Shown: positions 1-32,723 of the stretch, in pieces
How positions within the stretch are numbered: position 1 is the stretch's first letter
Layout: each line of letters begins with the position of its first letter
Assembly: GCA_016213945.1 (NCBI GenBank)
Contig: JACQZF010000059.1
Span: 1-32,980, forward strand
From: Nitrospirota bacterium
GTDB lineage: Bacteria; Nitrospirota; Thermodesulfovibrionia; UBA6902
DNA length: 32,980 bases
Reading direction: 5' to 3'
Position numbers and translations under genes: made by a program
The notes under the pieces: generated by a model
What the model saw: the letters and a program-made list of their open reading frames with translations, nothing else
Databases searched by the model: none
Told to the model about the DNA's origin: nothing

Positions 1-365
1 GACTCGGAATCCAGGACAATAATCTCCACATCTTCAACTTTTTTCTGTGAACGTATCACCCCGAGGAGCTGCCTTAACTGCTCCCCGCCGTTTTTGACCG
101 GGACAACAACCGATACCTTTGAAGTGATTGTCTGCGGCCTGCTGCTTTTGCCGTTCATCCCTCTTATCTGACATGAGAAACCTACTATCTTTCTGAGGAT
201 GTCGTCTTTCTCAGCCACATGTCTTTTCAAATCCTGCACCGCGCCCTCAGCAGCCAATAATTTTCTCACTTGCCTTGAGCAGGCCTCCTGCTTCTTAACA
301 ATAATGCGGCCGGCGCATTCAAGCGCCCACTCTAATTCTTTTATTCTTTCCGGGGTATCTGTCAT
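1..365 (-). CDS. Glycosyltransferase family 2, N-terminal part (runs off left edge)
   Basis: This open frame starts at ATG 365, with an AAAGGAG ribosome-binding site 7-8 bases before it, and stays open to base 1. About the first 80 residues are helical and charged and resemble a coiled coil. The frame then reads VSVVVPVKNGG followed by VEIIVLDSES, the first beta strand and the nucleotide-sugar-binding start of a GT-A (family 2) glycosyltransferase. The DxD metal site and acceptor region lie outside the window, so the sugar donor cannot be inferred. It follows the B12-type radical SAM gene by 18 bases and is the sixth gene of the run that begins with fliS at 6654. An enzyme adding sugars to a surface polymer or flagellin is plausible. 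The family call is fairly safe; the substrate is unknown. Confidence 0.75.
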   Translation of the reverse strand, partial: MTDTPERIKELEWALECAGRIIVKKQEACSRQVRKLLAAEGAVQDLKRHVAEKDDILRKIVGFSCQIRGMNGKSSRPQTITSKVSVVVPVKNGGEQLRQLLGVIRSQKKVEDVEIIVLDSE

Positions 366-383
366 AGCTTCATCTCCTTTGAC

Positions 384-1718
384 CTATGCAAAAATGGTGT
401 CAGTCACCATCAGCGCCTTGAGAAATTCATAATCAACACCCTTTACCTTTGCATCCATAGCGCCCCTGTTGCTCAACCGTTCATTGCCTTCGTCTCCTAT
501 TATGAGACGGTTGCTTTTGTAAAAATCATACAAGCCGCTCCCCGGCACAGGCGTATAGAACGCCGGGGAGAAATGGACCGGATCAGCACGTAAAACTCCT
601 TCGACAGTCATCAGGTCGTCTTCCTTGTGCCAGCCCGTATCAGTCGGGATGCCGAGGATATAATTCGCCCACACCTTTATATTATGTTTATGCAGGATCT
701 CTGCGGCCCTGCTGTTTTGTTCCGGCGTTACTCCTTTGCCAAACCACTGCAGTATCCTCGGACTGAAGGACTCAAAACCGACGATCAGCAGCAGCAGTCC
801 GGCGTCAGCCATCTTGCCGATCAATTCATCATTCCTGCAAATGATATCGGCCCTGCTTGAGGTGACCCATTTAAATCCTCTTTTCACGAGCCCGCTTTTA
901 TGGAGCTCTTTGATGAATTCAGAGACCCATTGAGGATTCATGATGAACTGGTCATCATGAAACATCGCGGACTTGATGCCGTATTTTTCAATCAGCATCT
1001 CAATTTCCGCAATGACGTTTGAAACACTTCTGCCGCGAATGTACGGCACTCGCTTCCCGCTCTCAGTGACCTTTGTATAAAGCTGGTGCTCGCCGGGCCC
1101 GCAGCAGAACTTGCAGTTATAAGGACAGCCTCGTGCATTAATGATCTCAGCCATCGGCAAAGGAAAGCTGAACTGTGATATTCCAAACGGCTCGCAATTT
1201 ATTCTTGTTTTAAAGTCAGTCCATATCTCCCTGTCCGGGAAAGGGACTTTGTCCAAGTCCGGGGCCTCGCCCCAGAAATATTTCGGGAACTGCGAAGGGT
1301 CTTCCACCAGCAATGGAAAACTTATCTCACCTTCACCCTGCATTGCATAATCAAATGCTCCGGTCTCAAGGCATTCCTCCGGGAACATTGTCGGGTGAAT
1401 GCCTCCGGCAACTGTCACAACCTTGGGCAGAAGTTTCTTTGCCCTTTTAGCGGCCTCAACCGCCGGGGTAAATTCAACAGAGTGCATCGTTACTCCGATG
1501 AATTCCGGGGACATTCTTTTGACCAGCTCTTCATATTCTTCCCATCCAGACAAGGTCCTCAGGTCAGCAAGAGAAACCTCATGCCCCCTCGCCTTCAAAG
1601 CGCCTGCCAGATAAGCCAGCCCCAGCCTTATAAAGATATTGTCCGGGGAAGGCTGCTTAAAACCTGCATTCCATGTGCTGTAAGCCAGTGCCGGATTGAC
1701 CAGTAATACCTTAGCCAT
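384..1718 (-). CDS. B12-binding-domain radical SAM protein
   Basis: The protein has 444 residues. Residues 1-140 look like the Rossmann-type cobalamin-binding domain found before many radical SAM domains (MAKVLLVNPA start, VVTVAGGIHPT loop, GEGE before the linker). No DxHxxG cobalamin-ligand motif is visible, which is common in this group. The radical SAM cluster motif CPYNCKFC is at residues 198-205 (Cys198, Cys202, Cys205), so a 4Fe-4S cluster and SAM cleavage are expected. Family members methylate unreactive carbons or rearrange carbon skeletons, for example in lipids, bacteriochlorophyll and natural products. The gene lies 48 bases after a SPASM radical SAM gene and 18 bases before a glycosyltransferase gene, which suggests tailoring of a glycan or lipid-linked product. 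The exact reaction cannot be read from the sequence. Confidence 0.85.
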   Translation of the reverse strand: MAKVLLVNPALAYSTWNAGFKQPSPDNIFIRLGLAYLAGALKARGHEVSLADLRTLSGWEEYEELVKRMSPEFIGVTMHSVEFTPAVEAAKRAKKLLPKVVTVAGGIHPTMFPEECLETGAFDYAMQGEGEISFPLLVEDPSQFPKYFWGEAPDLDKVPFPDREIWTDFKTRINCEPFGISQFSFPLPMAEIINARGCPYNCKFCCGPGEHQLYTKVTESGKRVPYIRGRSVSNVIAEIEMLIEKYGIKSAMFHDDQFIMNPQWVSEFIKELHKSGLVKRGFKWVTSSRADIICRNDELIGKMADAGLLLLIVGFESFSPRILQWFGKGVTPEQNSRAAEILHKHNIKVWANYILGIPTDTGWHKEDDLMTVEGVLRADPVHFSPAFYTPVPGSGLYDFYKSNRLIIGDEGNERLSNRGAMDAKVKGVDYEFLKALMVTDTIFA

Positions 1719-1766
1719 TTAAAAACCTCCGTTAAATAAATTTCTCACTTATTCACAAATATCAAT

Positions 1767-3221
1767 TCACAGGGAGAACAATTCACTCTTGAAAAATTTC
1801 TTATCAATACATACCTTACATCTTTCACCATACATGCTCTCACTGTATTTGCCCGCGATGAAGGCTTTTCTTAGATTGACATATGCTTCATTGTTCCATA
1901 TCTTTTCAAACTCTCCTTCTAAGACATTGCCTATAAACCTGTTACCGCCCACTACACAACATGGCGATATGTTTCCGTCAAAACAAACATAACTGGACTG
2001 AAAGGGCTCCAGACATGAAACTTGTAATCTCCCGGCATTCCCTGTTGTATTCTGTGTAATTTTTTCTTCAGATGCGTTATCAATAACCTGTCCCCTGTTA
2101 TTCAATAACGATTCAAAGGTATCAACAGCGTTACCTGACAAAGCGATACCTGATGCTTTCGCATATTCCTTAGTCCTGTTGTAGACATCAAGCAATTTGC
2201 CGTGTTCATTAAATCGTACATACTCAAATTTGGCAGGGACAATTCCAACGTTAACAAAAACAATAGAAGATACGCCAAATCTCGAAGCAAATTTTACATA
2301 CTCCGGCATATCTAAAACATTCTGGTTCATAACCACATATTCAAAGCCGACTAAAGGAAACACGGATGCATATTTCTCTTTTAACTCCAGGATCATTTGC
2401 AGGTTATTTACCAGCCTTTCGTAGCTGCCGTTTTTCCTTATCAGCTCGTAATTTTCTTTGTAAGGACTGTCAATGGATATAGTGATGTTAGTCACCCTGT
2501 TTTCGATCAGGTTTTTAATCTTTTCCTCATTTAGAAGAAGGGCATTTGTATTGAAACCGATCATTGCTTTTTCATTATGCCTTCTTATTCTGTTAATCAT
2601 TTCCGGGAATCTGACGTTGGTATAAGGCTCTCCCCATCCGGCCATTTTAAAGTAACTAATATAGGGGAACAGTGTTTCGATTCTATCAAACACATCCCAT
2701 TTCATTGTCCCTATTCCAACGCCTCTCTTTTTAAGCTCAATTATGTATTCCCTGGACCTGCACATAATGCATTCCAAGTTGCACATTTTCGATGGTTCAA
2801 TAAACAAATATGTCGGCATACTATCAAGAGTTGTTTCCCTGTTAGAGTAATTCTCCAGAAGTCTGAGTTGATTTATTTCCACGCGGGTCAATAAAGAATT
2901 GTCGATTGCAACCTCACCGCTAAAGCAGATGTCATCTTTATTATCATTAGATGCCTTTATCTCTAAAAGATGTTTGCCGTCAGGAAAGTCCGTGGTTTTT
3001 AATAAATATCTAAATCTGCTTTGCCTCGATCCTTCAATATCAGGATGAACATTAACTACATCATTCCTTTCAATACCGTAGACTGCCTGCCCCAAACATT
3101 TTCCATCGAGATGAACATCTATCTTGTGTAATTTACTGTCAGAAACAATCCACCCTTCAACAACACTAATACTTTTCATCACACGCATAACCTTCGGTCT
3201 GTCACAATGCCCTTTAATCAT
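1767..3221 (-). CDS. Radical SAM/SPASM protein with N-terminal beta-sandwich-like domain
   Basis: I chose ATG 3221, which lies 8 bases after the stop of the upstream gene and gives 484 residues. A longer frame from 3302 would overlap that gene by 74 bases. The first ~110 residues contain a repeat-like pattern (VVEGWIVSD, HLDGKCLG, YGIERNDV, FPDGKHLLEIKA) seen in beta-sandwich modules attached to glycan-biosynthesis proteins. The radical SAM motif CNLECIMC follows (Cys147, Cys151, Cys154 from this start). The C-terminus has a SPASM-type cysteine set (CLEPF, CFDG, SPCC, CKVC) that would bind auxiliary 4Fe-4S clusters. SPASM proteins include peptide and sugar modifying enzymes such as dehydrogenases and epimerases. 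The context points to a glycan or protein modification. The domain calls are strong; the substrate is not known. Confidence 0.85.
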   Translation of the reverse strand: MIKGHCDRPKVMRVMKSISVVEGWIVSDSKLHKIDVHLDGKCLGQAVYGIERNDVVNVHPDIEGSRQSRFRYLLKTTDFPDGKHLLEIKASNDNKDDICFSGEVAIDNSLLTRVEINQLRLLENYSNRETTLDSMPTYLFIEPSKMCNLECIMCRSREYIIELKKRGVGIGTMKWDVFDRIETLFPYISYFKMAGWGEPYTNVRFPEMINRIRRHNEKAMIGFNTNALLLNEEKIKNLIENRVTNITISIDSPYKENYELIRKNGSYERLVNNLQMILELKEKYASVFPLVGFEYVVMNQNVLDMPEYVKFASRFGVSSIVFVNVGIVPAKFEYVRFNEHGKLLDVYNRTKEYAKASGIALSGNAVDTFESLLNNRGQVIDNASEEKITQNTTGNAGRLQVSCLEPFQSSYVCFDGNISPCCVVGGNRFIGNVLEGEFEKIWNNEAYVNLRKAFIAGKYSESMYGERCKVCIDKKFFKSELFSL

Positions 3222-3228
3222 ATTTATT

Positions 3229-5625
3229 CTATGTTCCTGAATGGACTGATTCTGATAATGATTCAAGATTAATTCTTGCCTCCCTGCAATCGGGGGCAAC
3301 ACTCAATGCCTTCATGAAATAACTCCTCGCATTGCCAGCGTTGCCTTTATAAAGCTCTATGACACCGAGGTTGTTCAGAGCGTCAGCATTACCGGGCTGC
3401 ATCAATACGGCCTTTTCAAAAAAACCCTTTGCGTCGTCATAACTTCCAAACCCGAAACAGACCTCCCCGGCCTCTATTAGCATTTCAGGGGATGGAGACT
3501 CGCTGTATATTCTTTTTAAAAGCTTCTCCAGCGCAGGCGCTGTTCCCTGTACTTTCCCTATAATGCCGGACAGCTTCCGGTTTTCACGTTCGAGCGAAGA
3601 TATATGGGCATCCCTGTTACTCGGCGCTTTTTTGAGGTCGTGCAGAAGGGTCTCAGATACATCCAGGAGACTGGATTTTACTGCAAATTTATTGTCATCT
3701 ATTTTCTCATCGGAGGCTATCGCAATGAACAGCTTTGCTTTTCTTTTTGCGGCATTCAGGAAATGGAATTCGCTGCCTTCCTTTTCCATGAGATAATCCC
3801 TGAAAATTATCGCGTCATCATAAAGAGGGAATATATCTGATGACGCGCAAACTTTCTGGCCATAGAGACTAATATTTTTAAAGTTGGCGGTCAGGAGACT
3901 ATTAAACTCATCGAGACTCAATTCCTTCACATGAAATTCATTCTGATAGTTAGGATTTTCAGCATGTAATTCATATTTGTTTGGGGTGGACACAATAAAC
4001 ATTCCGTCTTTTTTAAGCAGCCTTTTGACCTCTCTTAATAAATCGTCCTGTTCAGTTATATGCTCTAATGCCTCAAAGCTGATAATAATATCAAACAAAT
4101 ATTGACCCTCTATAGGAATGTCTGACATAGAGCCTTGGATAAACTTAAGATTTTCTCTTCGATATTTAATAGAGGCATGTCTTATTGCTTCATCGGCGAT
4201 GTCAATACCTGTAACGGAGTCGGCATCGTCAGAAAGCATCAAACAACCGTAGCCTTCTCCACAGCCAAGATCCAATACCTTTTTCCCTTTTACAAATTCC
4301 TTCACAAACCTATATCTGTGCAGATGTTCGTAATTCATCTCAGGATCATCGGCCCACGGAACATATCTTTCCCCTGTAAATGCAAGCAAGGGTTCTTTGT
4401 TCCGGTAGTGAATGGTCATATATTGCTTGCAAAGCCTTTCAATATAAAAGAAGACCGTTTCCCCTTTTATGACATTTTTCGGCTTTATCTCTATCTTTTC
4501 CCTGTCAATATATGCAATCTGTCCTTCTATTTCCGCAATGAGTCTTCTCGCCGTTAATTCTTCATCAATGTTTCCCTCAGTAAGTTTCACCAGAGATTTC
4601 CCGTCTATATCAAAATCAGAACAGTCGTAGTCAACGATGCTGCATATAGTCGGGAAAATATCAACAAGGCTTACATGAGTTTCTATTGTTTTTTTCTCTA
4701 TATCCCATCCCATGTGAGGCTTGATCAAAAAGGGCACATGTATCTGATCCGGTGTTACAGTCAGCCCGTGAAAGAACCAGACATTGTTTTCACCAAACGC
4801 CTCGCCGTGATCTGATGTCAATATAATCAGAGAGTCGTCATAGATGTCCAGATTTTTAAGCTTATCAATCAATCGCTCAATGACAGAATCCTCATGCCTG
4901 ATTCCCCCATCATATTCCGCCACGTAATACCTTGCATCTTTTTCATATGACAGAAGATTTCCGTCCGGGTCCCTTTCCGGTTTTAAAATTTCGTAATCCG
5001 GGATTCCTCCAGCAGGGTCATGCCCCTCCCTGATCTCAAGAATAGTTTCTTCTCCGTAATACTCATCTTCAAAAAATATTTCACTGAATCCATCCGGATT
5101 TGTATAGGGGCCGTGGACATCGAAATAATGCATGAACAGGAAAAAATCTTTTTCGCAATTTCTATCCAGCCATTCAAACGCCCTCTGGTTCGTCTCCTCT
5201 CCTTTTCTGAAAAGCTCTTCGCTCCTGTTGATCTCACTCGTAGTGCATTCGTCATTATAAAATTTAAACCCGGTACTGAAACCCATTTCTTTCCTTAATG
5301 GCAAAGCAGATACAAATGCCGCTGTCTCATATCCCTCTGACGCTAAAATCTCCTGAAGCATTATCTCGCTGTCGGGTTTGTAAAATAATTTATCGCTGTT
5401 TGCAAAGCCGAAGGTGTGTTTGCCTGGATATTTTCCTGTAAACATGGATGCGTGAGAAGGAACGGTATATGAGCAGGCAGAGAAGGCCTGCTGGAAAACT
5501 ACGCATTCCCGGCTCCACCTGTCAATAAAAGGGCCCGTGTTTCTTTTATATCCATAGCAGCCCAGGTGGTCAGCCCTTAACGTGTCTATCGAAATAAAGA
5601 TTATCTTCTCCGGTTTTTTCATCAC
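3229..5625 (-). CDS. Sulfatase-like / SAM-methyltransferase / TPR fusion protein
   Basis: This 798-residue protein joins three modules. Residues 1-370 are an alkaline-phosphatase-superfamily sulfatase-like domain: metal Asp14 (SIDTLRADHLG), the nucleophile loop around residues 54-58 (TVPSH), His171 (FDVHGPY) and Asp272-His273 (TSDHGEAFGE). The nucleophile position is Thr54, not the Cys or Ser that is converted to formylglycine, and the usual Arg is His58, so a classical formylglycine sulfatase is unlikely. A phosphotransferase-type activity as in Thr-using relatives is possible. Residues ~415-600 are a class I methyltransferase (TGERYVPW, then LDLGCGEGYG near 450-459 and GIDIADEAI). Residues ~675-690 look coiled, and 712-790 hold about two TPRs. 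No signal peptide or membrane segment is seen, so it is probably cytoplasmic. It overlaps the upstream gene by 4 bases (ATGA), which indicates coupled translation. Confidence 0.85.
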   Translation of the reverse strand: MMKKPEKIIFISIDTLRADHLGCYGYKRNTGPFIDRWSRECVVFQQAFSACSYTVPSHASMFTGKYPGKHTFGFANSDKLFYKPDSEIMLQEILASEGYETAAFVSALPLRKEMGFSTGFKFYNDECTTSEINRSEELFRKGEETNQRAFEWLDRNCEKDFFLFMHYFDVHGPYTNPDGFSEIFFEDEYYGEETILEIREGHDPAGGIPDYEILKPERDPDGNLLSYEKDARYYVAEYDGGIRHEDSVIERLIDKLKNLDIYDDSLIILTSDHGEAFGENNVWFFHGLTVTPDQIHVPFLIKPHMGWDIEKKTIETHVSLVDIFPTICSIVDYDCSDFDIDGKSLVKLTEGNIDEELTARRLIAEIEGQIAYIDREKIEIKPKNVIKGETVFFYIERLCKQYMTIHYRNKEPLLAFTGERYVPWADDPEMNYEHLHRYRFVKEFVKGKKVLDLGCGEGYGCLMLSDDADSVTGIDIADEAIRHASIKYRRENLKFIQGSMSDIPIEGQYLFDIIISFEALEHITEQDDLLREVKRLLKKDGMFIVSTPNKYELHAENPNYQNEFHVKELSLDEFNSLLTANFKNISLYGQKVCASSDIFPLYDDAIIFRDYLMEKEGSEFHFLNAAKRKAKLFIAIASDEKIDDNKFAVKSSLLDVSETLLHDLKKAPSNRDAHISSLERENRKLSGIIGKVQGTAPALEKLLKRIYSESPSPEMLIEAGEVCFGFGSYDDAKGFFEKAVLMQPGNADALNNLGVIELYKGNAGNARSYFMKALSVAPDCREARINLESLSESVHSGT

Positions 5626-6272
5626 AAATATCCAAGGCTCCTTAGATTTGCTTTAATCTCTTCCATGTCCTCAGACACAGCTTCGTTTTTGTCCTCCGGT
5701 AATGCTGTGCAGGGAATGCAGTCAAGTGACCGGTAGCCCTTCCGATACAGTGAACAAAGAGGGACATGAAGCTCTTCGATATAATCGCTGACATCCTTTT
5801 CTTCAAAATGCAGCATGGGATGAATGCTTGCACGCTGAGAGTCAGACCATTTCAGTAAATATGCTCCCTCATTACCATCATCTCTCACGCTGGTTATAAG
5901 GACGTCAAGTCCAAGACTTTTAACAGCCGTTTCTAAAGGCTCTGTCTTTAACCGCTGACAACAGATATCCCTGTCCTCTCCTGCAACCAGACACCTTGCC
6001 ACAATCTCATTGCTGAAAGAATATAAATCCAGATGCCACAGCTTCCTCATCTTTTCTGTAAATGCAGTGACCTCCGGGAACTCCACGGTTGTGCCAATCT
6101 TTATGACCCTGAAGGGAACCCTTCCACCGCATACGTCCCTTATCAAATGCAAAAGCATTGTGGAATCCTTGTCTCCCGAAAAGATAACTCCAATCTTTTG
6201 GTGATCAAATTTCCCGGTGACTTCTGAAATCACTTTCTTTGATTTACTGACTTTTTCCAAAAGACCTTCCAA
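5622..6272 (-). CDS. PAPS reductase / ATP-PPase family protein
   Basis: The protein has 216 residues and starts at TTG 6272 with a GGGAG ribosome-binding site about 9 bases upstream. The PP-loop of the adenine-nucleotide alpha-hydrolase fold is at residues 32-37 but reads SGDKDS, not the canonical SGGKDS. The block PFRVIKIGTTVEF and the pair Cys104-Cys105 followed by KTEPLETAV resemble CysD/CysH proteins. The C-terminus has the CysH-like HPMLHFEEKDV, LYRKGYRSL and a CxxC (Cys185, Cys188). Relatives activate or reduce sulfate as APS/PAPS or adenylate other substrates. The gene starts 16 bases after fliS and overlaps the sulfatase-like fusion by ATGA. A role in sulfur-containing surface modification is possible, but housekeeping sulfate assimilation is equally consistent with the family alone. 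Confidence 0.8.
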   Translation of the reverse strand: MEGLLEKVSKSKKVISEVTGKFDHQKIGVIFSGDKDSTMLLHLIRDVCGGRVPFRVIKIGTTVEFPEVTAFTEKMRKLWHLDLYSFSNEIVARCLVAGEDRDICCQRLKTEPLETAVKSLGLDVLITSVRDDGNEGAYLLKWSDSQRASIHPMLHFEEKDVSDYIEELHVPLCSLYRKGYRSLDCIPCTALPEDKNEAVSEDMEEIKANLRSLGYL

Positions 6273-6288
6273 AACTTCATCTCCCTTA

Positions 6289-6654
6289 TCAGGCGTTGCC
6301 TTTCTCTATTTCCTTCCAGGCGTCTCTCAATATCACGATCACCCTCTCAGCTCCTTCAATCGCAGCAATGTCTCTCTGCTGTTCCGCTCTGAGAAGGCTG
6401 TTGAGCACGTAATCATAAAGTCTTTTCAGGTTCAGCGCTATCTCGCCGCCGTCCATGTTCAATGAACTCGCAAGCTCCCTTATGATCGCCGAGGCTTTTT
6501 TGATATGCCGTTCGGCTCCGTATGAATCACCCTGATTTAATTTCACGGTCGCAGCCTGTAAAAATTTCAACGCGCCGTCATAAAGCAGCGAAACCGTTTT
6601 GATTTTTTCATCCTCGCTGATAGTCCCCTGTTTGGCGGAAATTGTTTGCTCCAT
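6289..6654 (-). CDS. fliS: Flagellin export chaperone FliS (paralogue 1)
   Basis: This 121-residue protein matches FliS in size and pattern: LLYDGALKFLQAA, an internal HIKKASAIIRELASSLN helix, GEIALNLKRLYDYVLNSLL and a C-terminal VIVILRDAWKEI. FliS binds the C-terminal helix of unfolded flagellin in the cytoplasm and passes it to FlhA for export. A strong AAAAGGAG ribosome-binding site precedes ATG 6654. A sigma-54-type promoter lies about 70 bases upstream, so this copy is transcribed separately from the fliC-flaG-fliD-fliS group. A second, divergent fliS lies at 6897-7286. The genes that follow closely are not flagellar structural genes, so this copy may head a modification operon. Confidence 0.93.
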   Translation of the reverse strand: MEQTISAKQGTISEDEKIKTVSLLYDGALKFLQAATVKLNQGDSYGAERHIKKASAIIRELASSLNMDGGEIALNLKRLYDYVLNSLLRAEQQRDIAAIEGAERVIVILRDAWKEIEKGNA

Positions 6655-6723
6655 GCGTATCTCCTTTTCTCAAATTATTTTCAATATAAATAACAAACGC
6701 ATATAAACATACAGGCAAGTGAT

Positions 6724-6739
6724 TGCAAGTACTTTGCCA
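6724..6739 (-). promoter_or_regulatory. Sigma-54 (RpoN) promoter upstream of fliS paralogue 1
   Basis: The minus strand reads TGGCAA-AGTAC-TTGCA, matching the consensus TGGCAC-N5-TTGCA at all but one position with the correct GG to GC spacing. It lies 70 bases before the fliS start at 6654 and points toward it. Sigma-54 promoters need an enhancer-binding activator. The perfect palindrome at 6856-6879, about 120-140 bases upstream, is a possible but unproven site for one. Confidence 0.75.
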
Positions 6740-6855: not shown

Positions 6856-6879
6856 TTCTTGACGAGATGTCGTCAAGAA
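6856..6879 (-). terminator. Perfect 10-bp hairpin after fliS paralogue 2
   Basis: TTCTTGACGA and TCGTCAAGAA pair perfectly around a 4-base loop, 17-40 bases after the stop of the fliS gene at 6897. On the minus strand the stem is followed by CAAATTTT, a weak T-run, so it may terminate the fliC-flaG-fliD-fliS transcript. It also sits where an activator of the sigma-54 promoter at 6724-6739 would bind, so it could be an operator or serve both purposes. Confidence 0.5.
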
Positions 6880-8673: not shown

Positions 8674-9018
8674 CTATCCCTCCTTGTTTATCAGGAGACC
8701 TTTTAAATCTCTTGCATGCTTTGAAAGCGCTATAAGCTCTTCCGAAGGTATCTGGCGAATGACCTCACCGGTCTCGCTGTCTACAACCTTTACCACCATG
8801 GTATTCAGATCTTTTTCCACTTCAAGTTTTATCTTCCGGTTGAAAAACTTTGCAATGCTGACTACATTATCTATCGCTTCTTTTATTTCTCTGTTATAGG
8901 TCTGTTCAGCATCGTGAGTTTCAGTTTTCTTTTTGCTTTTATCTAAATTCCCGCTGTGCTGAATTTCCTTTGATGGGATGCTTTCCAAATTTTCTGTTTT
9001 TACAATTCCATCAATCAT
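8674..9018 (-). CDS. flaG: FlaG family protein
   Basis: I chose ATG 9018 (114 residues, MIDGIVKTENLES), which has a GGGGGAG ribosome-binding site 9-10 bases upstream. A GTG at 9045 would add nine residues but sits inside the hairpin at 9039-9076. The C-terminal half carries the FlaG signature: a helix (IKEAIDNVVSIAKFFNRK), then LKFEV-like strands (IKLEVEKDLNTMVVKVVDSETGEVIRQIPSEELI). The N-terminal half is charged and probably disordered. FlaG proteins affect filament length in several genera, but the mechanism is not settled. The gene lies between fliC and fliD, its usual place. Confidence 0.9.
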   Translation of the reverse strand: MIDGIVKTENLESIPSKEIQHSGNLDKSKKKTETHDAEQTYNREIKEAIDNVVSIAKFFNRKIKLEVEKDLNTMVVKVVDSETGEVIRQIPSEELIALSKHARDLKGLLINKEG

Positions 9019-9038
9019 GCTACACACTCCCCCACCTA

Positions 9039-9076
9039 TTTTCACGGATAGGGTAAGACTACCCTACCCGTGAAAA
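9039..9076 (-). terminator. 17-bp hairpin between fliC and flaG
   Basis: Two 17-base arms (9039-9055 and 9060-9076) pair with one G-T wobble around the loop 9056-9059. The arms begin or end with runs of four T or A, so the transcript has a U-flanked, A-flanked stem 9 bases after the fliC stop. It looks like a terminator or a 3' stabiliser that would leave more fliC than flaG-fliD mRNA. There is no T-run directly after the stem, so termination may be partial. Confidence 0.65.
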
Positions 9077-9084
9077 TTCATCCC

Positions 9085-9930
9085 TTACTGCATTAACTGT
9101 AAAGCGTACTGCGGAATTACGTTTGCCTGTGAAAGGACCGCAACTCCGGCCTGTAATATTATCTGGCTTCTTGTGAGATTGGCAGTCTCGACAGCGAAAT
9201 CCGCGTCAGCAATTCTTGAATTAGCTGCCGACAGGTTTTCAGAAGCAATTGAAAGGTTTGCTATCGTATTGCCGAGTCTGTTCTGAACACCGCCAAGATT
9301 GCCTCTTCTTGTAGAAACAGTTGCTATCGCACTGTCTACGAGAGTCAGCATGGATTGCGCGTTCGCTGCAGTTTCAATGCTCGACTGGGCAGTACTGAGC
9401 CCGAGGGCCGATGAATCGATATCACCGAAGGTGCCCCCGGTGACGGTTATTCTGTCATTTGCGGTATTGTTAATGCCAACCTGTAATGATACTCCGTTTG
9501 CACTTAATGTGCCGTCCAGCAGTTTAAGTCCGTTGAATTCTGTTGTATCTGAAATCCTCGTGATTTCAGCCTTCAGATCCTGAAACTCGTTGTTTAGAGC
9601 AGTCCTGTCAGAAGTTGCCAATGTGCCGGTAGCTGCCTGTTGCGAAAGCTCTCTCATCCTCGTAAGGATGTTGTGAATTTCATTCATTCCGCCTTCTGCG
9701 GTCTGCACAACGGAAATACCGTCCTGGGCATTTCTTACAGCTTGGTTAAGACTGCGGATATGAGCAGTCAATTTCATTGAAATCGCGAGCCCTGCTGCAT
9801 CATCCTTTGCGGAATTTACTCTTAAACCTGATGACAATCTCTCAACTGATGTTCCGAGGCTGCCCTGTGCACGCCCTAAGTTTCTCTGTGCATTTAATGA
9901 AAATAAGTTAGTGTTGACTATTAAACCCAT
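9085..9930 (-). CDS. fliC: Flagellin FliC
   Basis: This 281-residue flagellin consists of little more than the conserved D0-D1 core. The N-terminus (GLIVNTNLFSLNAQRNL, then LSSGLRVNSAKDDAAGLAIS) and the C-terminus (NLSAANSRIADADFAVETANLTRSQIILQAG) are canonical, with a short middle (residues ~140-210) in place of large D2-D3 domains. The last residues read QANVIPQYALQLMQ, close to the usual ending. FliC polymerises into the filament after export with FliS. The Ser/Thr-rich middle could carry O-linked glycans, but no specific site can be read. Transcription is from a sigma-28 promoter with a ~150-base leader holding a CsrA-type hairpin. AAGGAGGA lies 4-5 bases before the ATG. Confidence 0.97.
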   Translation of the reverse strand: MGLIVNTNLFSLNAQRNLGRAQGSLGTSVERLSSGLRVNSAKDDAAGLAISMKLTAHIRSLNQAVRNAQDGISVVQTAEGGMNEIHNILTRMRELSQQAATGTLATSDRTALNNEFQDLKAEITRISDTTEFNGLKLLDGTLSANGVSLQVGINNTANDRITVTGGTFGDIDSSALGLSTAQSSIETAANAQSMLTLVDSAIATVSTRRGNLGGVQNRLGNTIANLSIASENLSAANSRIADADFAVETANLTRSQIILQAGVAVLSQANVIPQYALQLMQ

Positions 9931-10088: not shown

Positions 10089-10115
10089 TTATCGGATGTT
10101 TTTTGAAAAACTTTA
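10089..10115 (-). promoter_or_regulatory. Sigma-28 (FliA) promoter of fliC
   Basis: The minus strand has TAAAGTTT, 11 bases, TCCGATAA. This equals the FliA consensus TAAAGTTT-N11-GCCGATAA except for one base. Transcription would start near 10081 and give a leader of about 150 bases. fliA (19553-20284) and its inhibitor flgM (14025-14315) are in the same cluster. Confidence 0.9.
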
Positions 10116-18271: not shown

Positions 18272-18979
18272 TTATCTACCCATCTCATTTGTAACTTTTG
18301 ACGTCGCATCATCAAATGACTGGATCATCTTCTGATAAGCCTCAAACTCCCTGACAGCGGTTATCATCTGCACCATCTCTTTAACCGCGTCGACATTAGA
18401 TGACTCAAGAAAGCCCTGGCTGACTGATGATTTAACTTCTTCGCCGGGAGTGTCCGTTACAAATACCCCGCCGTTTAATTTTTCAAGTGTGGACTTGTCA
18501 GAGAAATCAACGATCTTCAGTTTTCCGACTGATATGTCATCAACAAATACTTCGCCGGATGTGCTGATATTGATCTCCTTTCCCTGCACTGATATCGGGC
18601 CCCCGCTGCCGACAACTTTTGTTCCATCCTGAGTTGCGAGATAACCCTCGCTGTCAATCCTGAAATTACCGTTCCTCGTGTACTTATTATCTTCAAGCGA
18701 AAAAAAGCCTTCACCGTTGACGGCCAAGTCAAGCGGATTGCCGGTACTCATAATTCCTCCGCTTGAAAAGTCATTTTCAACCTTTCCGAGCTCGGCCATT
18801 GTCCTTCCATCGGTGACCAGCGGCGGTTTATTGTCCACCGGGATTAAATAGTCCTTAAATGATATCCGCTCTTTTTTATATCCCGGGGTGCTCGCATTCG
18901 CGACATTCTGGGCAAAGAGGTCCATATGTCTCTGCTTTAAAATTGCTCCTGAGAGCGCTATGTACATTCCTTTATACAT
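18272..18979 (-). CDS. flgF: Proximal rod protein FlgF
   Basis: I chose ATG 18979 (235 residues, MYKGMYIALSGAILKQ), which fits the usual FlgF start. The longer frame from 19051 begins in CACAGAG-type repeat DNA. Landmarks are RHMDLFAQNVANASTPGYKKERISF, GNPLDLAVNGEGFFSLEDNKYTRNGNFRIDSEGYL and the C-terminal SQGFLESSNVDAVKEMVQMITAVREFEAYQKMIQSFDD. FlgF is part of the rod between FlgC and FlgG. It is the first gene after the sigma-54-type promoter at 19108-19123. The start could also be the ATG at 18967. Confidence 0.94.
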   Translation of the reverse strand: MYKGMYIALSGAILKQRHMDLFAQNVANASTPGYKKERISFKDYLIPVDNKPPLVTDGRTMAELGKVENDFSSGGIMSTGNPLDLAVNGEGFFSLEDNKYTRNGNFRIDSEGYLATQDGTKVVGSGGPISVQGKEINISTSGEVFVDDISVGKLKIVDFSDKSTLEKLNGGVFVTDTPGEEVKSSVSQGFLESSNVDAVKEMVQMITAVREFEAYQKMIQSFDDATSKVTNEMGR

Positions 18980-18987
18980 CTTTTTAA

Positions 18988-19050
18988 ACCACAGAGTACA
19001 CAGAGAACAAGAAGTTTCTTTTGTTATTTTTCTCTGTGCGCTCTTTTTCA
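18988..19050. repeat. CACAGAG-type short repeat before flgF
   Basis: ACCACAGAGTACACAGAGAACAAG on one side and TTCTCTGTGCGCTCT on the other give an imperfect inverted pair of CACAGAG units in the flgF leader. Related strings appear at 19091-19101 and at 31023-31112. Confidence 0.6.
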
Positions 19051-19107
19051 TAAAATTTATTTTTCATAGTCTGTCTCTTAATCGCCTCAGTGTTCTCTGT
19101 GATTTAC

Positions 19108-19123
19108 TGCAAGCTTGATGCCA
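19108..19123 (-). promoter_or_regulatory. Sigma-54 (RpoN) promoter of the flgF operon
   Basis: The minus strand reads TGGCAT-CAAGC-TTGCA, with one mismatch to TGGCAC-N5-TTGCA and the correct spacing. It lies about 130 bases before flgF and points toward it, which places flgF-flgG-flgA-flgH-flgI-flgJ in the middle class of the flagellar hierarchy. Confidence 0.75.
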
Positions 19124-29718: not shown

Positions 29719-31029
29719 ATGAATCAGGAAATTGATCTTAAAGATCTGGACCTGGCGGCCTTTGAAGAAAAAGTCTATGTCATCGCAGACGAAGTCCTCG
29801 TCATCCTCAAGGAATTATCACGTGAAAATCAGAAACAGATAAGCAGCAAACTGATAGCTGAGAAGATGTTCAACAAAGACACCGTAAAATGCGTCCTGGT
29901 GAATAACGGCATCGCTTCATCAAATACTGAGATTGACCGTCTGAAGGAAATAGCCAACGTAATTTTAGACAGGTTTACCGAGCTGGTACCCTCTCATATG
30001 ACAGATAAATTTGATACTCTGAAGAACATGTTTAATAACAACGCTGCAGCCATAAACGCAAAGGACTGGCTCGATTCACCAATCGATATTCTCAGGAAAT
30101 ATATCGGGTCCCTCTCTGACAGAAATAATGAGGTAGAAGAATTTTTGAAACAAACGATGCAATATCTCGCCGCTATTGAACAGCCTCTAACGGGTGAACT
30201 GGCTTCACAGCAGCAGAAATTCAGGGATGAGAGGGCCTTTGAAGAAGATTTAACAAGCTATATAAATATGATGCGTCAGGACTGCAATCATCACACTGAC
30301 ATCAATGCCCTCAAGGCGGCTTTTTTGAACAAGATAGAAAACATTAACAAAGGAATCGAGCAAAAAAGGGAACAGGATATACAAAGGCTGAAAGACGCGG
30401 AGAAGACTTTAGGGGAAATGTGGGAGCGGATGAATGAAATCAAACACGAAGCTGAGGAAATAAGAAAAAAATCCCAGGAAATGGAATTTGAATCTTACCA
30501 TGACGCCCTCACAGGCATCTATAACCGCAGGGCTTATGATGAAAAAATTGAGGAAATTCTGGCCCATGTTCAGCGGTACGATATACCGGCAACGCTGATG
30601 ATCTGCGATATAGACTTTTTCAAGAAAATCAACGACAAGTTCGGACATAAAATCGGGGACCTCGCGCTTAAGAAACTGGCCGACCTCCTGAAAGAAAGAT
30701 TAAGGAAAAACGATTTCATTGCAAGATACGGCGGGGAGGAGTTTGCAATCATCCTGCCGCACACTGATCTGAACGGCGCAAAAATAGCGGGAGAAAGCGT
30801 CAGGTCTTATATTGACAAGTCCGTATTCTCCTACAAAGGGCAAAAAATTCCCTTGACGATAAGCGCAGGTGTCAGTTCCTTCAAAAAAGATGATGACATT
30901 ACTACGGTATTTGAAAGGGCTGACAAGGCCCTTTACCTTGCCAAAAAGTCTGGAAGGAACCTTGTAAGGACTGATGAAGATGTGCTTGCTGAAGCGACCG
31001 CACCCAACTTATTAAAACAAAACCACTGA
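29719..31029 (+). CDS. Diguanylate cyclase (GGDEF) with helical N-terminal domain
   Basis: The protein has 436 residues and no signal peptide or membrane helix, so it is likely soluble. Residues 1-245 are helical and of unknown fold. A coiled coil follows (EMWERMNEIKHEAEEIRKKSQEME), then the GGDEF domain (DALTGIYNRRAYDEKI start). The active site is GGEEF at residues 338-342. The inhibitory site RKND (329-332) is present five residues before it. It should therefore make c-di-GMP from two GTP and be subject to product inhibition. It is divergent to fliL. With a sigma-28-like promoter it could be made together with late flagellar genes to set the swim-or-stick choice. The input signal of the N-terminal domain is unknown. 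Confidence 0.92.
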   Translation: MNQEIDLKDLDLAAFEEKVYVIADEVLVILKELSRENQKQISSKLIAEKMFNKDTVKCVLVNNGIASSNTEIDRLKEIANVILDRFTELVPSHMTDKFDTLKNMFNNNAAAINAKDWLDSPIDILRKYIGSLSDRNNEVEEFLKQTMQYLAAIEQPLTGELASQQQKFRDERAFEEDLTSYINMMRQDCNHHTDINALKAAFLNKIENINKGIEQKREQDIQRLKDAEKTLGEMWERMNEIKHEAEEIRKKSQEMEFESYHDALTGIYNRRAYDEKIEEILAHVQRYDIPATLMICDIDFFKKINDKFGHKIGDLALKKLADLLKERLRKNDFIARYGGEEFAIILPHTDLNGAKIAGESVRSYIDKSVFSYKGQKIPLTISAGVSSFKKDDDITTVFERADKALYLAKKSGRNLVRTDEDVLAEATAPNLLKQNH

Positions 31030-31263: not shown

Positions 31264-31459
31264 AAGACAATCAATCGGCAGCAGATATATCTAATGCCGC
31301 CGAGCCTTCAGGAATGGCTGCCGGAGAAAGACATGGCGTGGTTCATAATCGACGTAGTAGAAAGACAATCAATCGGCAGCAGATATATCTAATGCCGCCG
31401 AGCCTTCAGGAATGGCTGCCGGAGAAAGACATGGCGTGGTTCATAATCGACGTAGTAGA
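31264..31459 (+). repeat. 98-bp tandem duplication at the 5' end of the transposase gene
   Basis: Bases 31264-31361 and 31362-31459 are the same 98-base sequence. Since 98 is not a multiple of 3, the frame from ATG 31249 shifts and meets TAA at 31390-31392. That stop overlaps an ATG at 31392 in the native transposase frame (TAATG). Confidence 0.95.
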
Positions 31460-32723
31460 GCAGATGGATCTGAGTGCATACTATCGAAAGTATCGGGCAG
31501 ATGGACGAGGACAGGAGGCGTATGATCCGTCGATGATGATAGCGCTAATGGTATACGCCTACAGCAATGGGATACAGTCTTCACGTGCCATAGAGCGGTT
31601 ATGTGAGCGAGACATAGGGTTCAAGGTAATCGCAGCAGAGGAGAAACCTGACCATACGACCATAGCAAGATTTCGGCAGGACAATGGGAAGGCCGTAGAG
31701 GAGTTATTCGTAGAAGCGCTGAAACTGTGTGCAAAGGCCGGGCTGGTAAAAGTAGGATTAGTGGCATTGGATGGGACAAAGATAAAGGCGGATGCGGCGC
31801 TTGAATCAAACCGGACCTATGATCATATAGAGAGCGAAGTAAAAAGGATGCTTGCCGAGGCCGAAGCCAAAGACACGGAAGAAGACAAACTTTATGGCAA
31901 GGGCAAGCGTGGAGACGAGTTGCCGGAAGAGTTGCAGGATCGCGGGAAAAGATTGGCCCGTTTGAAAGAGTGCAAAGCACGGTTGGAGCAGGAGAGATCT
32001 GAAAAAGTTGCCAGACAAAAAGAGAAGATACAAGAGCGGCAGAAACATGAATCAGAGAGGGGGCAGAAGCAGCGAGGCCGTAAACCCCAAGAACCGGAAG
32101 CAGTTATCAAGGCTGATGCAAAGGCAAATGTAACTGATCCCGACAGCCGGATAATGAAGACCCGCTCGGGATATGTGCAGGGATACAACGGACAGGCAAT
32201 GGTAACAGAAGATCAGATAATCATTGCGGCGGAACTTACGACAGAAGAAAACGATGTGAAGCAGCTAATCCCTATGATAGAAAAAGCAGAGGAAAATATT
32301 GCCGCATTGGAGTTGCATGACAAACGTATTGGAGTAGTATTAGCTGATGCCGGATATTGCAGCGATACGAACATGGAGAATACAGAGCCGGATGGCCCCG
32401 AGTGCATAATAGCGACCAAGAAAGATTGGAAACAACGGCAGGCGCTGAGAGAATCTGGTCCCCCTCGTGGACGCATCCCCGAAAACTTAACTTTACGGGA
32501 GCGGATGGAACGTAAGCTTCTAACAAAACGAGGGCGGGCATTGTATAAAAAACGAGGGCAGATTGTTGAGCCGATCTTCGGACAGATAAAAACCTGTCGA
32601 GGGATACAGAAATTTATGCGGCGCGGGTTTGAAGCTTGTGCCCATGAGTGGAAACTCATTTGCGCTACGCACAATCTATTGAAGTTATGGCGCAGCGGCA
32701 AAATGATGGTTAATGAAAGCTAA
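31314..32723 (+). CDS. IS1182-family transposase with disrupted 5' end
   Basis: The frame reads through the duplication, so the first ~21 residues from ATG 31314 (MAAGERHGVVHNRRSR) are out-of-frame reading of copy one. The native frame resumes at KTINRQQIYLMPPSLQEWLPEKDMAWF in copy two. An internal ATG at 31392 gives 443 residues (MPPSLQEW) and lacks only 15 native residues. The DDE core is intact: LVALDGTKIKADA, VVLADAGYCSD and RGQIVEPIFGQIK, with the helical N-terminal domain (YDPSMMIALMVYAYSNGIQSSRAIERL). It may still be expressed by termination-reinitiation at TAATG. Activity is uncertain. Confidence 0.85.
   Translation: MAAGERHGVVHNRRSRKTINRQQIYLMPPSLQEWLPEKDMAWFIIDVVEQMDLSAYYRKYRADGRGQEAYDPSMMIALMVYAYSNGIQSSRAIERLCERDIGFKVIAAEEKPDHTTIARFRQDNGKAVEELFVEALKLCAKAGLVKVGLVALDGTKIKADAALESNRTYDHIESEVKRMLAEAEAKDTEEDKLYGKGKRGDELPEELQDRGKRLARLKECKARLEQERSEKVARQKEKIQERQKHESERGQKQRGRKPQEPEAVIKADAKANVTDPDSRIMKTRSGYVQGYNGQAMVTEDQIIIAAELTTEENDVKQLIPMIEKAEENIAALELHDKRIGVVLADAGYCSDTNMENTEPDGPECIIATKKDWKQRQALRESGPPRGRIPENLTLRERMERKLLTKRGRALYKKRGQIVEPIFGQIKTCRGIQKFMRRGFEACAHEWKLICATHNLLKLWRSGKMMVNES

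What the first reader, a model, noticed from the sequence alone, without database searches (positions are those of the whole stretch)
1..6739. fliS-headed operon that may modify flagellin or a surface polymer
A sigma-54-type promoter (6724-6739) drives a second fliS, followed within small gaps or overlaps by a PAPS-reductase/ATP-PPase family gene, a sulfatase-like/methyltransferase/TPR fusion, a SPASM radical SAM gene, a B12-type radical SAM gene and a glycosyltransferase. Seen: order, strand, ATGA overlap, gaps of 7-48 bases. Known: these families tailor glycans, lipids and peptides. Inferred: a flagellum-linked modification pathway using sulfur or methyl groups, perhaps with FliS guiding unfolded flagellin to the enzymes.
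Basis: partly seen in the sequence, partly recalled or inferred. Interest (0 to 1): 0.65.

Follow-up and report, generated by a model that had tools for sequence, protein, structure and literature searches.

The report
Flagellin sugar-coating island with second FliS
This stretch is the front end of a fast-changing gene island in a Nitrospirota bacterium that very probably decorates the flagellar filament protein with unusual sugars, and throughout the genus it is headed by a second, separately switched flagellin chaperone whose job could reveal how bacteria tell decorated from undecorated flagellin.

Summary
The genes run fliS2, PAPS-reductase-like, sulfatase-like/methyltransferase/TPR, SPASM radical SAM, B12 radical SAM and a glycosyltransferase cut by the contig end. 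The sigma-54 site is at 6739-6724. A second contig (C6) very probably continues the cluster: four more glycan-type genes, then response regulator, PilZ, motA and motB. The island thus lies between flagellin/fliD/fliS and motAB.

The layout is family-wide: flagellin-flaG-fliD-fliS1-[glycosyltransferase]-fliS2-[variable cassette]. FliS1 and FliS2 form two well-supported clades. All ten genus genomes have two FliS but one flagellin. Sigma-54 sites precede fliS2 in 16 of 17 loci (about 0.1 expected) and flanking glycan genes in most, but not fliS1 or flagellin; flagellin has sigma-28 sites. The B12 radical SAM gene has flagellar genes on the same locus in 7 of 11 relatives outside the family.

'Flagellin modification' is therefore well supported, 'surface polymer' unlikely. 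'Sulfur chemistry' is weak: the sulfatase-like domain has Thr where sulfatases need Cys/Ser, and the PAPS-reductase-like protein lacks the catalytic Cys. Published work suggests FliS2 receives modified flagellin rather than delivers it to enzymes (inference). New variant of a known kind.

The parts
9085..9930 (-). flagellin, 281 aa; the only flagellin of the genome apart from FlgL
   Evidence: PF00669/PF00700; one flagellin plus FlgL in each of 10 genus genomes
10089..10115 (-). sigma-28-type promoter of flagellin, TAAAGTTT-N11-TCCGATAA (15 of 16 consensus bases)
   Evidence: such a site in 16 of 17 loci
8674..9045 (-). flaG
   Evidence: PF03646
7295..8671 (-). fliD
   Evidence: PF02465/PF07195
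6897..7286 (-). fliS1, canonical flagellin chaperone
   Evidence: PF02561 123 bits; TIGR00208 103 bits; S1 clade
6856..6879 (-). 10-bp hairpin after fliS1, possible terminator with only a weak T-run
   Evidence: fold -18.8 kcal/mol, z -3.5
6724..6739 (-). sigma-54 (-24/-12) promoter TGGCAAAGTACTTGCA of fliS2 and the operon
   Evidence: rpoN gene present in the genome
6289..6654 (-). fliS2, FliS paralogue of a family-wide clade
   Evidence: PF02561 97.8 bits, TIGR00208 71 vs cut-off 53.75; S2 clade 100/97; dN/dS 0.10-0.24
5622..6272 (-). PAPS-reductase/CysD-like ATP pyrophosphatase with CC...CxxC cysteines but without the catalytic ECGxH
   Evidence: PF01507 83.8 bits; alignment
3229..5625 (-). 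fusion of an alkaline-phosphatase-superfamily (sulfatase-like, Thr nucleophile position) domain, a SAM methyltransferase and TPR
1767..3221 (-). radical SAM/SPASM protein with an extra N-terminal domain of ~150 aa
   Evidence: PF04055, PF13186; relative next to the B12 radical SAM gene in L125
384..1718 (-). B12-binding radical SAM protein, with relatives of 50-80% identity in other classes and phyla
1..365 (-). family 2 glycosyltransferase, N-terminal part; continues at G000:C6:1-1257
   Evidence: 98-nt overlap of contig ends, 91 identical

Best explanation
This is the 5' half of a hypervariable flagellin O-glycosylation island in a Nitrospirota bacterium. A sigma-54 promoter drives fliS2 together with a cassette of enzymes (PP-loop ATPase, AP-superfamily/methyltransferase fusion, two radical SAM enzymes, several glycosyltransferases). 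The cassette builds a methylated, possibly phosphate-containing glycan and puts it on the single flagellin in the cytoplasm. Flagellin itself is made from a sigma-28 promoter, so, if the usual flagellar order of expression holds, enzymes and FliS2 are present before flagellin is. FliS2 most likely acts as a dedicated export chaperone that takes over flagellin after modification (hand-over), while FliS1, encoded downstream of flagellin and fliD, is the general chaperone. Shown here: gene content, co-linearity, promoter classes, paralogue clades, flagellar linkage, one flagellin per genome. Inferred: that flagellin is the acceptor, the chemistry of the glycan, and the FliS2 hand-over role.
For: Contig C6 continues the operon (glycosyltransferase, GT/DUF3880, a 276-aa conserved protein, GT with a Maf_flag10_N match of 36.7 bits vs cut-off 23.5, GT9) and ends in response regulator, PilZ, motA, motB. 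The order flagellin-flaG-fliD-fliS1-GT-fliS2-cassette recurs across the family. Cassettes differ, and none of the window's five has a >=50% homologue in nine genus-mates. In relatives the slot holds heptose-kinase-like, heptose-1-P guanylyltransferase-like, aminotransferase and FkbM genes. Sigma-54 sites: gene after fliS1 15/18, fliS2 16/17, gene after fliS2 13/17, against about 0.1 expected and 0/19 for fliS1. Sigma-28 sites before flagellin in 16/17. rpoN is present. FliS1 and FliS2 clades 100/99 and 100/97. Two FliS but one flagellin in 10/10 genus genomes. fliS2 is under purifying selection. The B12 radical SAM gene has flagellar genes on the locus in 7 of 11 distant relatives, right downstream of flagellin-flaG-fliD-fliS in four of them (L127, L196, L198, L200; one or two small or radical SAM genes may intervene). 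Precedents: PMC4065374, PMC5466977.
Against: No chemical evidence that this flagellin is glycosylated. In 4 of 11 relatives the B12 radical SAM gene has no flagellar gene within the held flank, and in one of these (G245) the radical SAM/GT set sits among housekeeping genes. The closest PAPS-like genes sit in what look like polysaccharide clusters. The glycosyltransferase gene found between fliS1 and fliS2 in most relatives is missing in the window. FliS2 binding to flagellin was not tested.
Confidence: 0.72

Rival explanations
1. The cassette makes a cell-surface polymer (LPS, capsule) and merely sits in a flagellar region.
For: The PAPS-like and sulfatase-like pair recurs beside likely polysaccharide genes (L131-L133, L137). 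Heptose-type genes and GT9 heptosyltransferase-like proteins are also typical of LPS. 4 of 11 B12 radical SAM relatives show no flagellar neighbour.
Against: Bracketing by flagellin/fliS and motAB. FliS2 is retained inside the island across the genus and other genera of the family. Independent flagellar linkage in 7 of 11 distant relatives, one labelled Elusimicrobia. No flippase, polymerase or export gene was seen in the Pfam-scanned proteins of the window and C6.
Confidence: 0.12
2. FliS2 is an adaptor that delivers unmodified, unfolded flagellin to the modifying enzymes.
For: FliS2 is closely packed with the enzyme genes behind one conserved promoter. The enzymes carry TPR domains that could dock a chaperone.
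Against: In A. caviae glycosylation does not need the chaperone and precedes it (PMC4065374). C. jejuni FliS prefers glycosylated flagellin and binds its non-glycosylated C-terminal end (PMC5466977).
Confidence: 0.15
3. FliS2 has another client or a regulatory role (for example FlgM or FliW binding, or a hook-filament junction protein) and sits here only because of its promoter.
For: FliS2 lost the conserved N-terminal Y-x-K-x-V and C-terminal tail of FliS1 and differs at fixed positions (His31 to Phe, Ser46 to Gly, Val64 to Ser, Asp66 to Asn, Thr109 to Ile). FliS is reported to interact with FlgM (PMC5466977).
Against: The core FliS motifs are kept (NL..LY, W113), and FliS2 is always found with the glycosylation genes in the loci read. 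A second-flagellin client is excluded in the genus.
Confidence: 0.25
4. The pathway adds sulfur or sulfate to the glycan, using PAPS-type chemistry and a sulfatase.
For: PAPS_reduct and Sulfatase Pfam matches. Fe-S-type cysteines CC...CxxC are kept in the PAPS-like protein.
Against: No catalytic ECGxH cysteine. Thr at the formylglycine position and His for Arg, conserved in all six aligned homologues. CysD and CysH cut-offs are not reached. No sulfotransferase was found among the scanned window and C6 proteins.
Confidence: 0.15

Closest known systems
Flagellin glycosylation islands with variable content (e.g. Geobacillus, PMC5109656; Aeromonas Maf system, PMC4065374)
   Same: Glycosyltransferases and sugar-biosynthesis genes next to flagellin/fliD/fliS, with cassettes that vary between close relatives
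   Different: Headed by a FliS paralogue on sigma-54 promoters; contains B12 and SPASM radical SAM enzymes; no pseudaminic/legionaminic set was recognised in the window or C6; Maf is seen only as a weak Maf_flag10_N match
Type A / b-type flagellin glycans of C. difficile and P. aeruginosa (PMC10714395, PMC11833859)
   Same: A small cluster beside flagellin with glycosyltransferase, methyltransferase and phosphate-transfer functions; C. difficile also has fliS1 and fliS2 (PMC7677006)
   Different: The proposed phosphotransferase there is TagF-like (CD0244); here the candidate is an alkaline-phosphatase-superfamily domain. No radical SAM enzymes are described in those clusters in the passages read. 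Homology to CD0241-CD0244 was not tested
Two-FliS bacteria (V. parahaemolyticus polar/lateral, cited in PMC5466977; strain MO-1, PMC7175107)
   Same: Two FliS proteins in one cell
   Different: Those organisms have several flagellins or two flagellar systems; here there is one flagellin, and FliS2 is tied to the glycan island
FliS preference for glycosylated flagellin (A. caviae FlaJ, C. jejuni FliS)
   Same: A chaperone that reads the modification state
   Different: There one FliS does everything; here the work may be split between two

Membership tests
Flagellin glycosylation island | Located among flagellar genes | tested here: met
   flagellin-flaG-fliD-fliS1 on one side, motAB on the other via contig C6
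Flagellin glycosylation island | Contains glycosyltransferases | tested here: met
Flagellin glycosylation island | Content varies between close relatives at a fixed place | tested here: met
Flagellin glycosylation island | Recognisable nonulosonic-acid/Maf pathway | tested here: inconclusive
   Only Maf_flag10_N at 36.7 bits in the C6 GT; no pse/leg set in window or C6
Flagellin glycosylation island | Flagellin carries a glycan | not testable with these tools
   needs mass spectrometry
FliS (TIGR00208 equivalog) | Score over curated cut-off | tested here: met
   71 vs 53.75 bits for fliS2
FliS (TIGR00208 equivalog) | Binds flagellin C-terminus | not testable with these tools
   needs pull-down
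Sigma-54 promoter | GG-N10-GC with -24/-12 consensus, conserved in relatives, rpoN present | tested here: met
Formylglycine sulfatase | Cys/Ser-x-Pro-x-Arg nucleophile motif | tested here: not met
   T-V-P-S-H in the window; Thr in all six aligned proteins
PAPS/APS reductase (CysH) | C-terminal catalytic ECGxH cysteine | tested here: not met
   Present in the CysH-like L140, absent in the window and its close relatives
PAPS/APS reductase (CysH) | Fe-S cysteines CC...CxxC of APS-type enzymes | tested here: met
   (sequence only; cluster binding not tested)
ATP sulfurylase small subunit CysD | Score over curated cut-off | tested here: not met
   83.7 vs 195 bits and 56.6 vs 396.6 bits
Radical SAM/SPASM | CX3CX2C plus SPASM domain | tested here: met
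   CNLECIMC in the sequence; SPASM 37.1 vs 21.5
B12-dependent radical SAM | B12-binding domain plus CX3CX2C | tested here: met
   PF02310 72.5 bits; CPYNCKFC

The most novel reading that the evidence does not exclude
FliS2 is a glycoform-specific flagellin chaperone: a duplicated FliS that evolved, next to a swappable glycosylation cassette and on the cassette's own sigma-54 promoter, to recognise only modified flagellin. Export quality control would then be split between two chaperones for one flagellin.
Probability: 0.35. Interest if true: 0.75.

Novelty: new variant of a known kind. Interest (0 to 1): 0.55.

Why it matters
How FliS senses glycosylation, although it binds a part of flagellin away from the glycans, is open. 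A lineage with one flagellin and two ancient, separately regulated FliS proteins, one locked to the glycosylation island, makes the question directly testable by swapping chaperones and measuring glycoform preference. The island also brings radical SAM enzymes and a non-canonical PAPS-reductase-like/AP-superfamily pair into flagellin modification, so unusual glycans can be expected.

Tried and rejected
Second flagellin as the client of FliS2: rejected within the genus, one flagellin each. FliS2 as a decaying copy: rejected, dN/dS 0.10-0.24 and a kept core. Window's fliS2 promoter as the fused promoter of a deleted glycosyltransferase gene: considered from the motif, but the site aligns about as well with the fliS2 promoter of the closest relative L065 (80% over 36 nt) as with glycosyltransferase promoters, so undecided. 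A missing glycosyltransferase relocated in the genome: only distant GT4 matches in the fetched C8 stretch (23-30% identity) and none in C6 or the window; not searched genome-wide. Second FliS in family f12: weak matches below cut-off, inside ~700-aa frames. Papers on PAPS reductase + sulfatase + radical SAM clusters, on radical SAM in flagellin glycosylation islands, and on Nitrospirota flagellin glycosylation: nothing relevant held. Structure prediction was not used, since the useful homologues came from a tool not on the predictor's stated list of allowed sources.

Full report
What is there. On the minus strand, reading away from the flagellin genes, the window holds flagellin, flaG, fliD, fliS1, then fliS2, a PAPS-reductase-like gene, a sulfatase-like/methyltransferase/TPR gene, a SPASM radical SAM gene, a B12 radical SAM gene and the first 121 codons of a family 2 glycosyltransferase. 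The sigma-54 motif TGGCAAAGTACTTGCA is at 6739-6724. The fusion gene joins the gene before it as GTGA or TGATG rather than ATGA.

The island does not stop at the window edge. The window is the start of contig C37. Its terminal 98 nt match the first 98 nt of contig C6 with 7 differences, six at third codon positions, and C6 opens with the rest of the same glycosyltransferase. This is the pattern of a strain-variant break in a metagenome assembly; the join is inferred, not proven. C6 then carries a DUF3880-type glycosyltransferase, a 276-aa protein without a Pfam match, a double glycosyltransferase with a Maf_flag10_N match, a GT9 protein, a small conserved protein, a response regulator, a PilZ protein, MotA and MotB. 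G266, a genome of another family in the class, ends its island in the same way (GT9, small protein, response regulators, PilZ-like protein, motA, motB).

A conserved slot with a swapped cassette. In the nine genus-mates the same frame recurs: flagellin-flaG-fliD-fliS1-[glycosyltransferase, often with methyltransferase and TPR domains]-fliS2-[cassette]. In G006 it is split over two contigs. It recurs in several other genera of the family too. The cassettes differ: heptose-type sugar nucleotide genes, aminotransferases, transketolase halves, FkbM methyltransferases and radical SAM enzymes. None of the window's five cassette genes has a homologue of 50% or more in the islands of nine genus-mates, while several of those share genes among themselves.

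Two FliS proteins, one flagellin. FliS1 (21 rows) and FliS2 (17 rows) form separate clades with 100/99 and 100/97 support. Mean identity is 71% within FliS1, 54% within FliS2 and 41% between them. FliS2 is under purifying selection (dN/dS 0.10-0.24) but lost the N-terminal Y-x-K-x-V and the C-terminal tail of FliS1 and has fixed differences. All ten genomes of the genus have exactly one flagellin besides FlgL and two FliS. Across the phylum FliS is found in 205 of 396 genomes and is usually single. The second copies found outside the family (G245, G202, G343, G306, G119, G400) are few, and none of those placed in the tree falls in the FliS2 clade.

Separate promoter classes. In a stretch from 300 nt upstream to 60 nt inside the gene, a sigma-54 site is found for the gene after fliS1 in 15 of 18 loci, for fliS2 in 16 of 17 and for the gene after fliS2 in 13 of 17. 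Shuffles give about 0.1 each; fliS1 has 0 of 19, fliD 1 of 19, flagellin 0 of 18. Flagellin has a near-perfect sigma-28 site in 16 of 17 (window 10115-10089). The genome has an RpoN gene. In the window, as in L065 and L066, no site follows fliS2, so fliS2 and the cassette are probably one transcript. A 10-bp hairpin separates fliS1 from the sigma-54 site.

Independent flagellar linkage. The B12 radical SAM protein has relatives of 50-80% identity in eleven genomes outside the family, labelled Nitrospirota and Nitrospiria, Nitrospinia, Deltaproteobacteria, Elusimicrobia and others. In L196, L198 and L200 the gene lies just after flagellin-flaG-fliD-fliS (in L196 with one small ORF between) and is followed by the same glycosyltransferases as in C6. 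In L127 a small gene and a SPASM radical SAM gene sit between fliS and it. In G057 it lies about 14 kb downstream of fliS on the same contig. In G266 motAB follow the island. In L202 (labelled Elusimicrobia) flhA and motB adjoin it. In four (L193, L195/G245, L197, L199) no flagellar gene was found in the held flanks.

Chemistry. The sulfatase-like domain has Thr-Val-Pro-Ser-His at the place of the formylglycine motif Cys/Ser-x-Pro-x-Arg; Thr is kept in all six aligned proteins. A Thr nucleophile is the state known from phosphodiesterases and phosphoethanolamine transferases of the alkaline phosphatase superfamily (own knowledge), so a phosphoryl transfer or hydrolysis role is likelier than desulfation. 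The PAPS-reductase-like protein keeps the CC...CxxC cysteines but lacks the catalytic ECGxH cysteine and misses the CysD/CysH cut-offs. Its closest relatives lie beside such sulfatase-like genes in what look like surface-polysaccharide clusters (L131 as a fusion, L132, L133, L137), so these two form a recurring pair of unknown chemistry. Phosphate-linked, methylated flagellin glycans are known in C. difficile and P. aeruginosa (PMC10714395, PMC11833859).

Role of FliS2. In A. caviae, flagellin is glycosylated before chaperone binding, the chaperone is not needed for glycosylation, and it prefers the glycosylated form (PMC4065374). C. jejuni FliS has the same preference (PMC5466977). The best inference is therefore that FliS2 receives modified flagellin rather than delivering naked flagellin to the enzymes. 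This is not tested here.

Verdict. The finding is real and its main reading (flagellin modification) is well supported by comparative evidence. The details about sulfur and about FliS direction are probably wrong. Flagellin glycosylation islands and second FliS proteins are both known. The family-wide combination of a FliS paralogue clade, one flagellin, sigma-54 control and a swappable cassette was not found described in the papers held, which is a limited library.

Noticed in passing
19108-19123: A second sigma-54 site (TGGCATCAAGCTTGCA) upstream of the ORF at 18272-19051 in the rod/ring gene region.
   Followed up: partly
29719-31029 and 31314-32723: A GGDEF protein and a transposase (DUF772/DDE) on the plus strand at the far end of the flagellar cluster.
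   Followed up: no
L153 8747-9181: A 144-aa protein without any Pfam or NCBIfam match, at the end of the glycan island, with relatives at the same place in L159 and L189 and one in L197.
   Followed up: partly
L131, L132, L133, L137: PAPS-reductase-like and Thr-type sulfatase-like genes are adjacent (fused in L131) in likely polysaccharide clusters; a recurrent pair of unknown chemistry.
   Followed up: partly
1-98 and L153 1-98: Contig ends overlap by 98 nt with 7 mismatches, six at third codon positions, suggesting strain variation inside the glycosyltransferase gene.
   Followed up: yes
L127 12635-13030, L160 76-447, L161 125-505: In other classes and families a small FliT/FlgN-like ORF of 123-131 aa abuts fliS and precedes the glycan genes; it had no Pfam match in L127.
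   Followed up: no
2770-3221: The SPASM radical SAM protein has an extra N-terminal domain of about 150 aa without a Pfam match.
   Followed up: no
L197 10001-14726: The B12 radical SAM and DUF3880 glycosyltransferase genes occur in a contig labelled Nitrososphaerales archaeon; possibly a mis-binned contig.
   Followed up: no
L189: G306 has a TPR/methyltransferase gene (50% identity to the C-terminal part of the window's fusion, without a sulfatase domain) in a flagellar glycan island, and a distant second FliS at the island's far end.
   Followed up: partly
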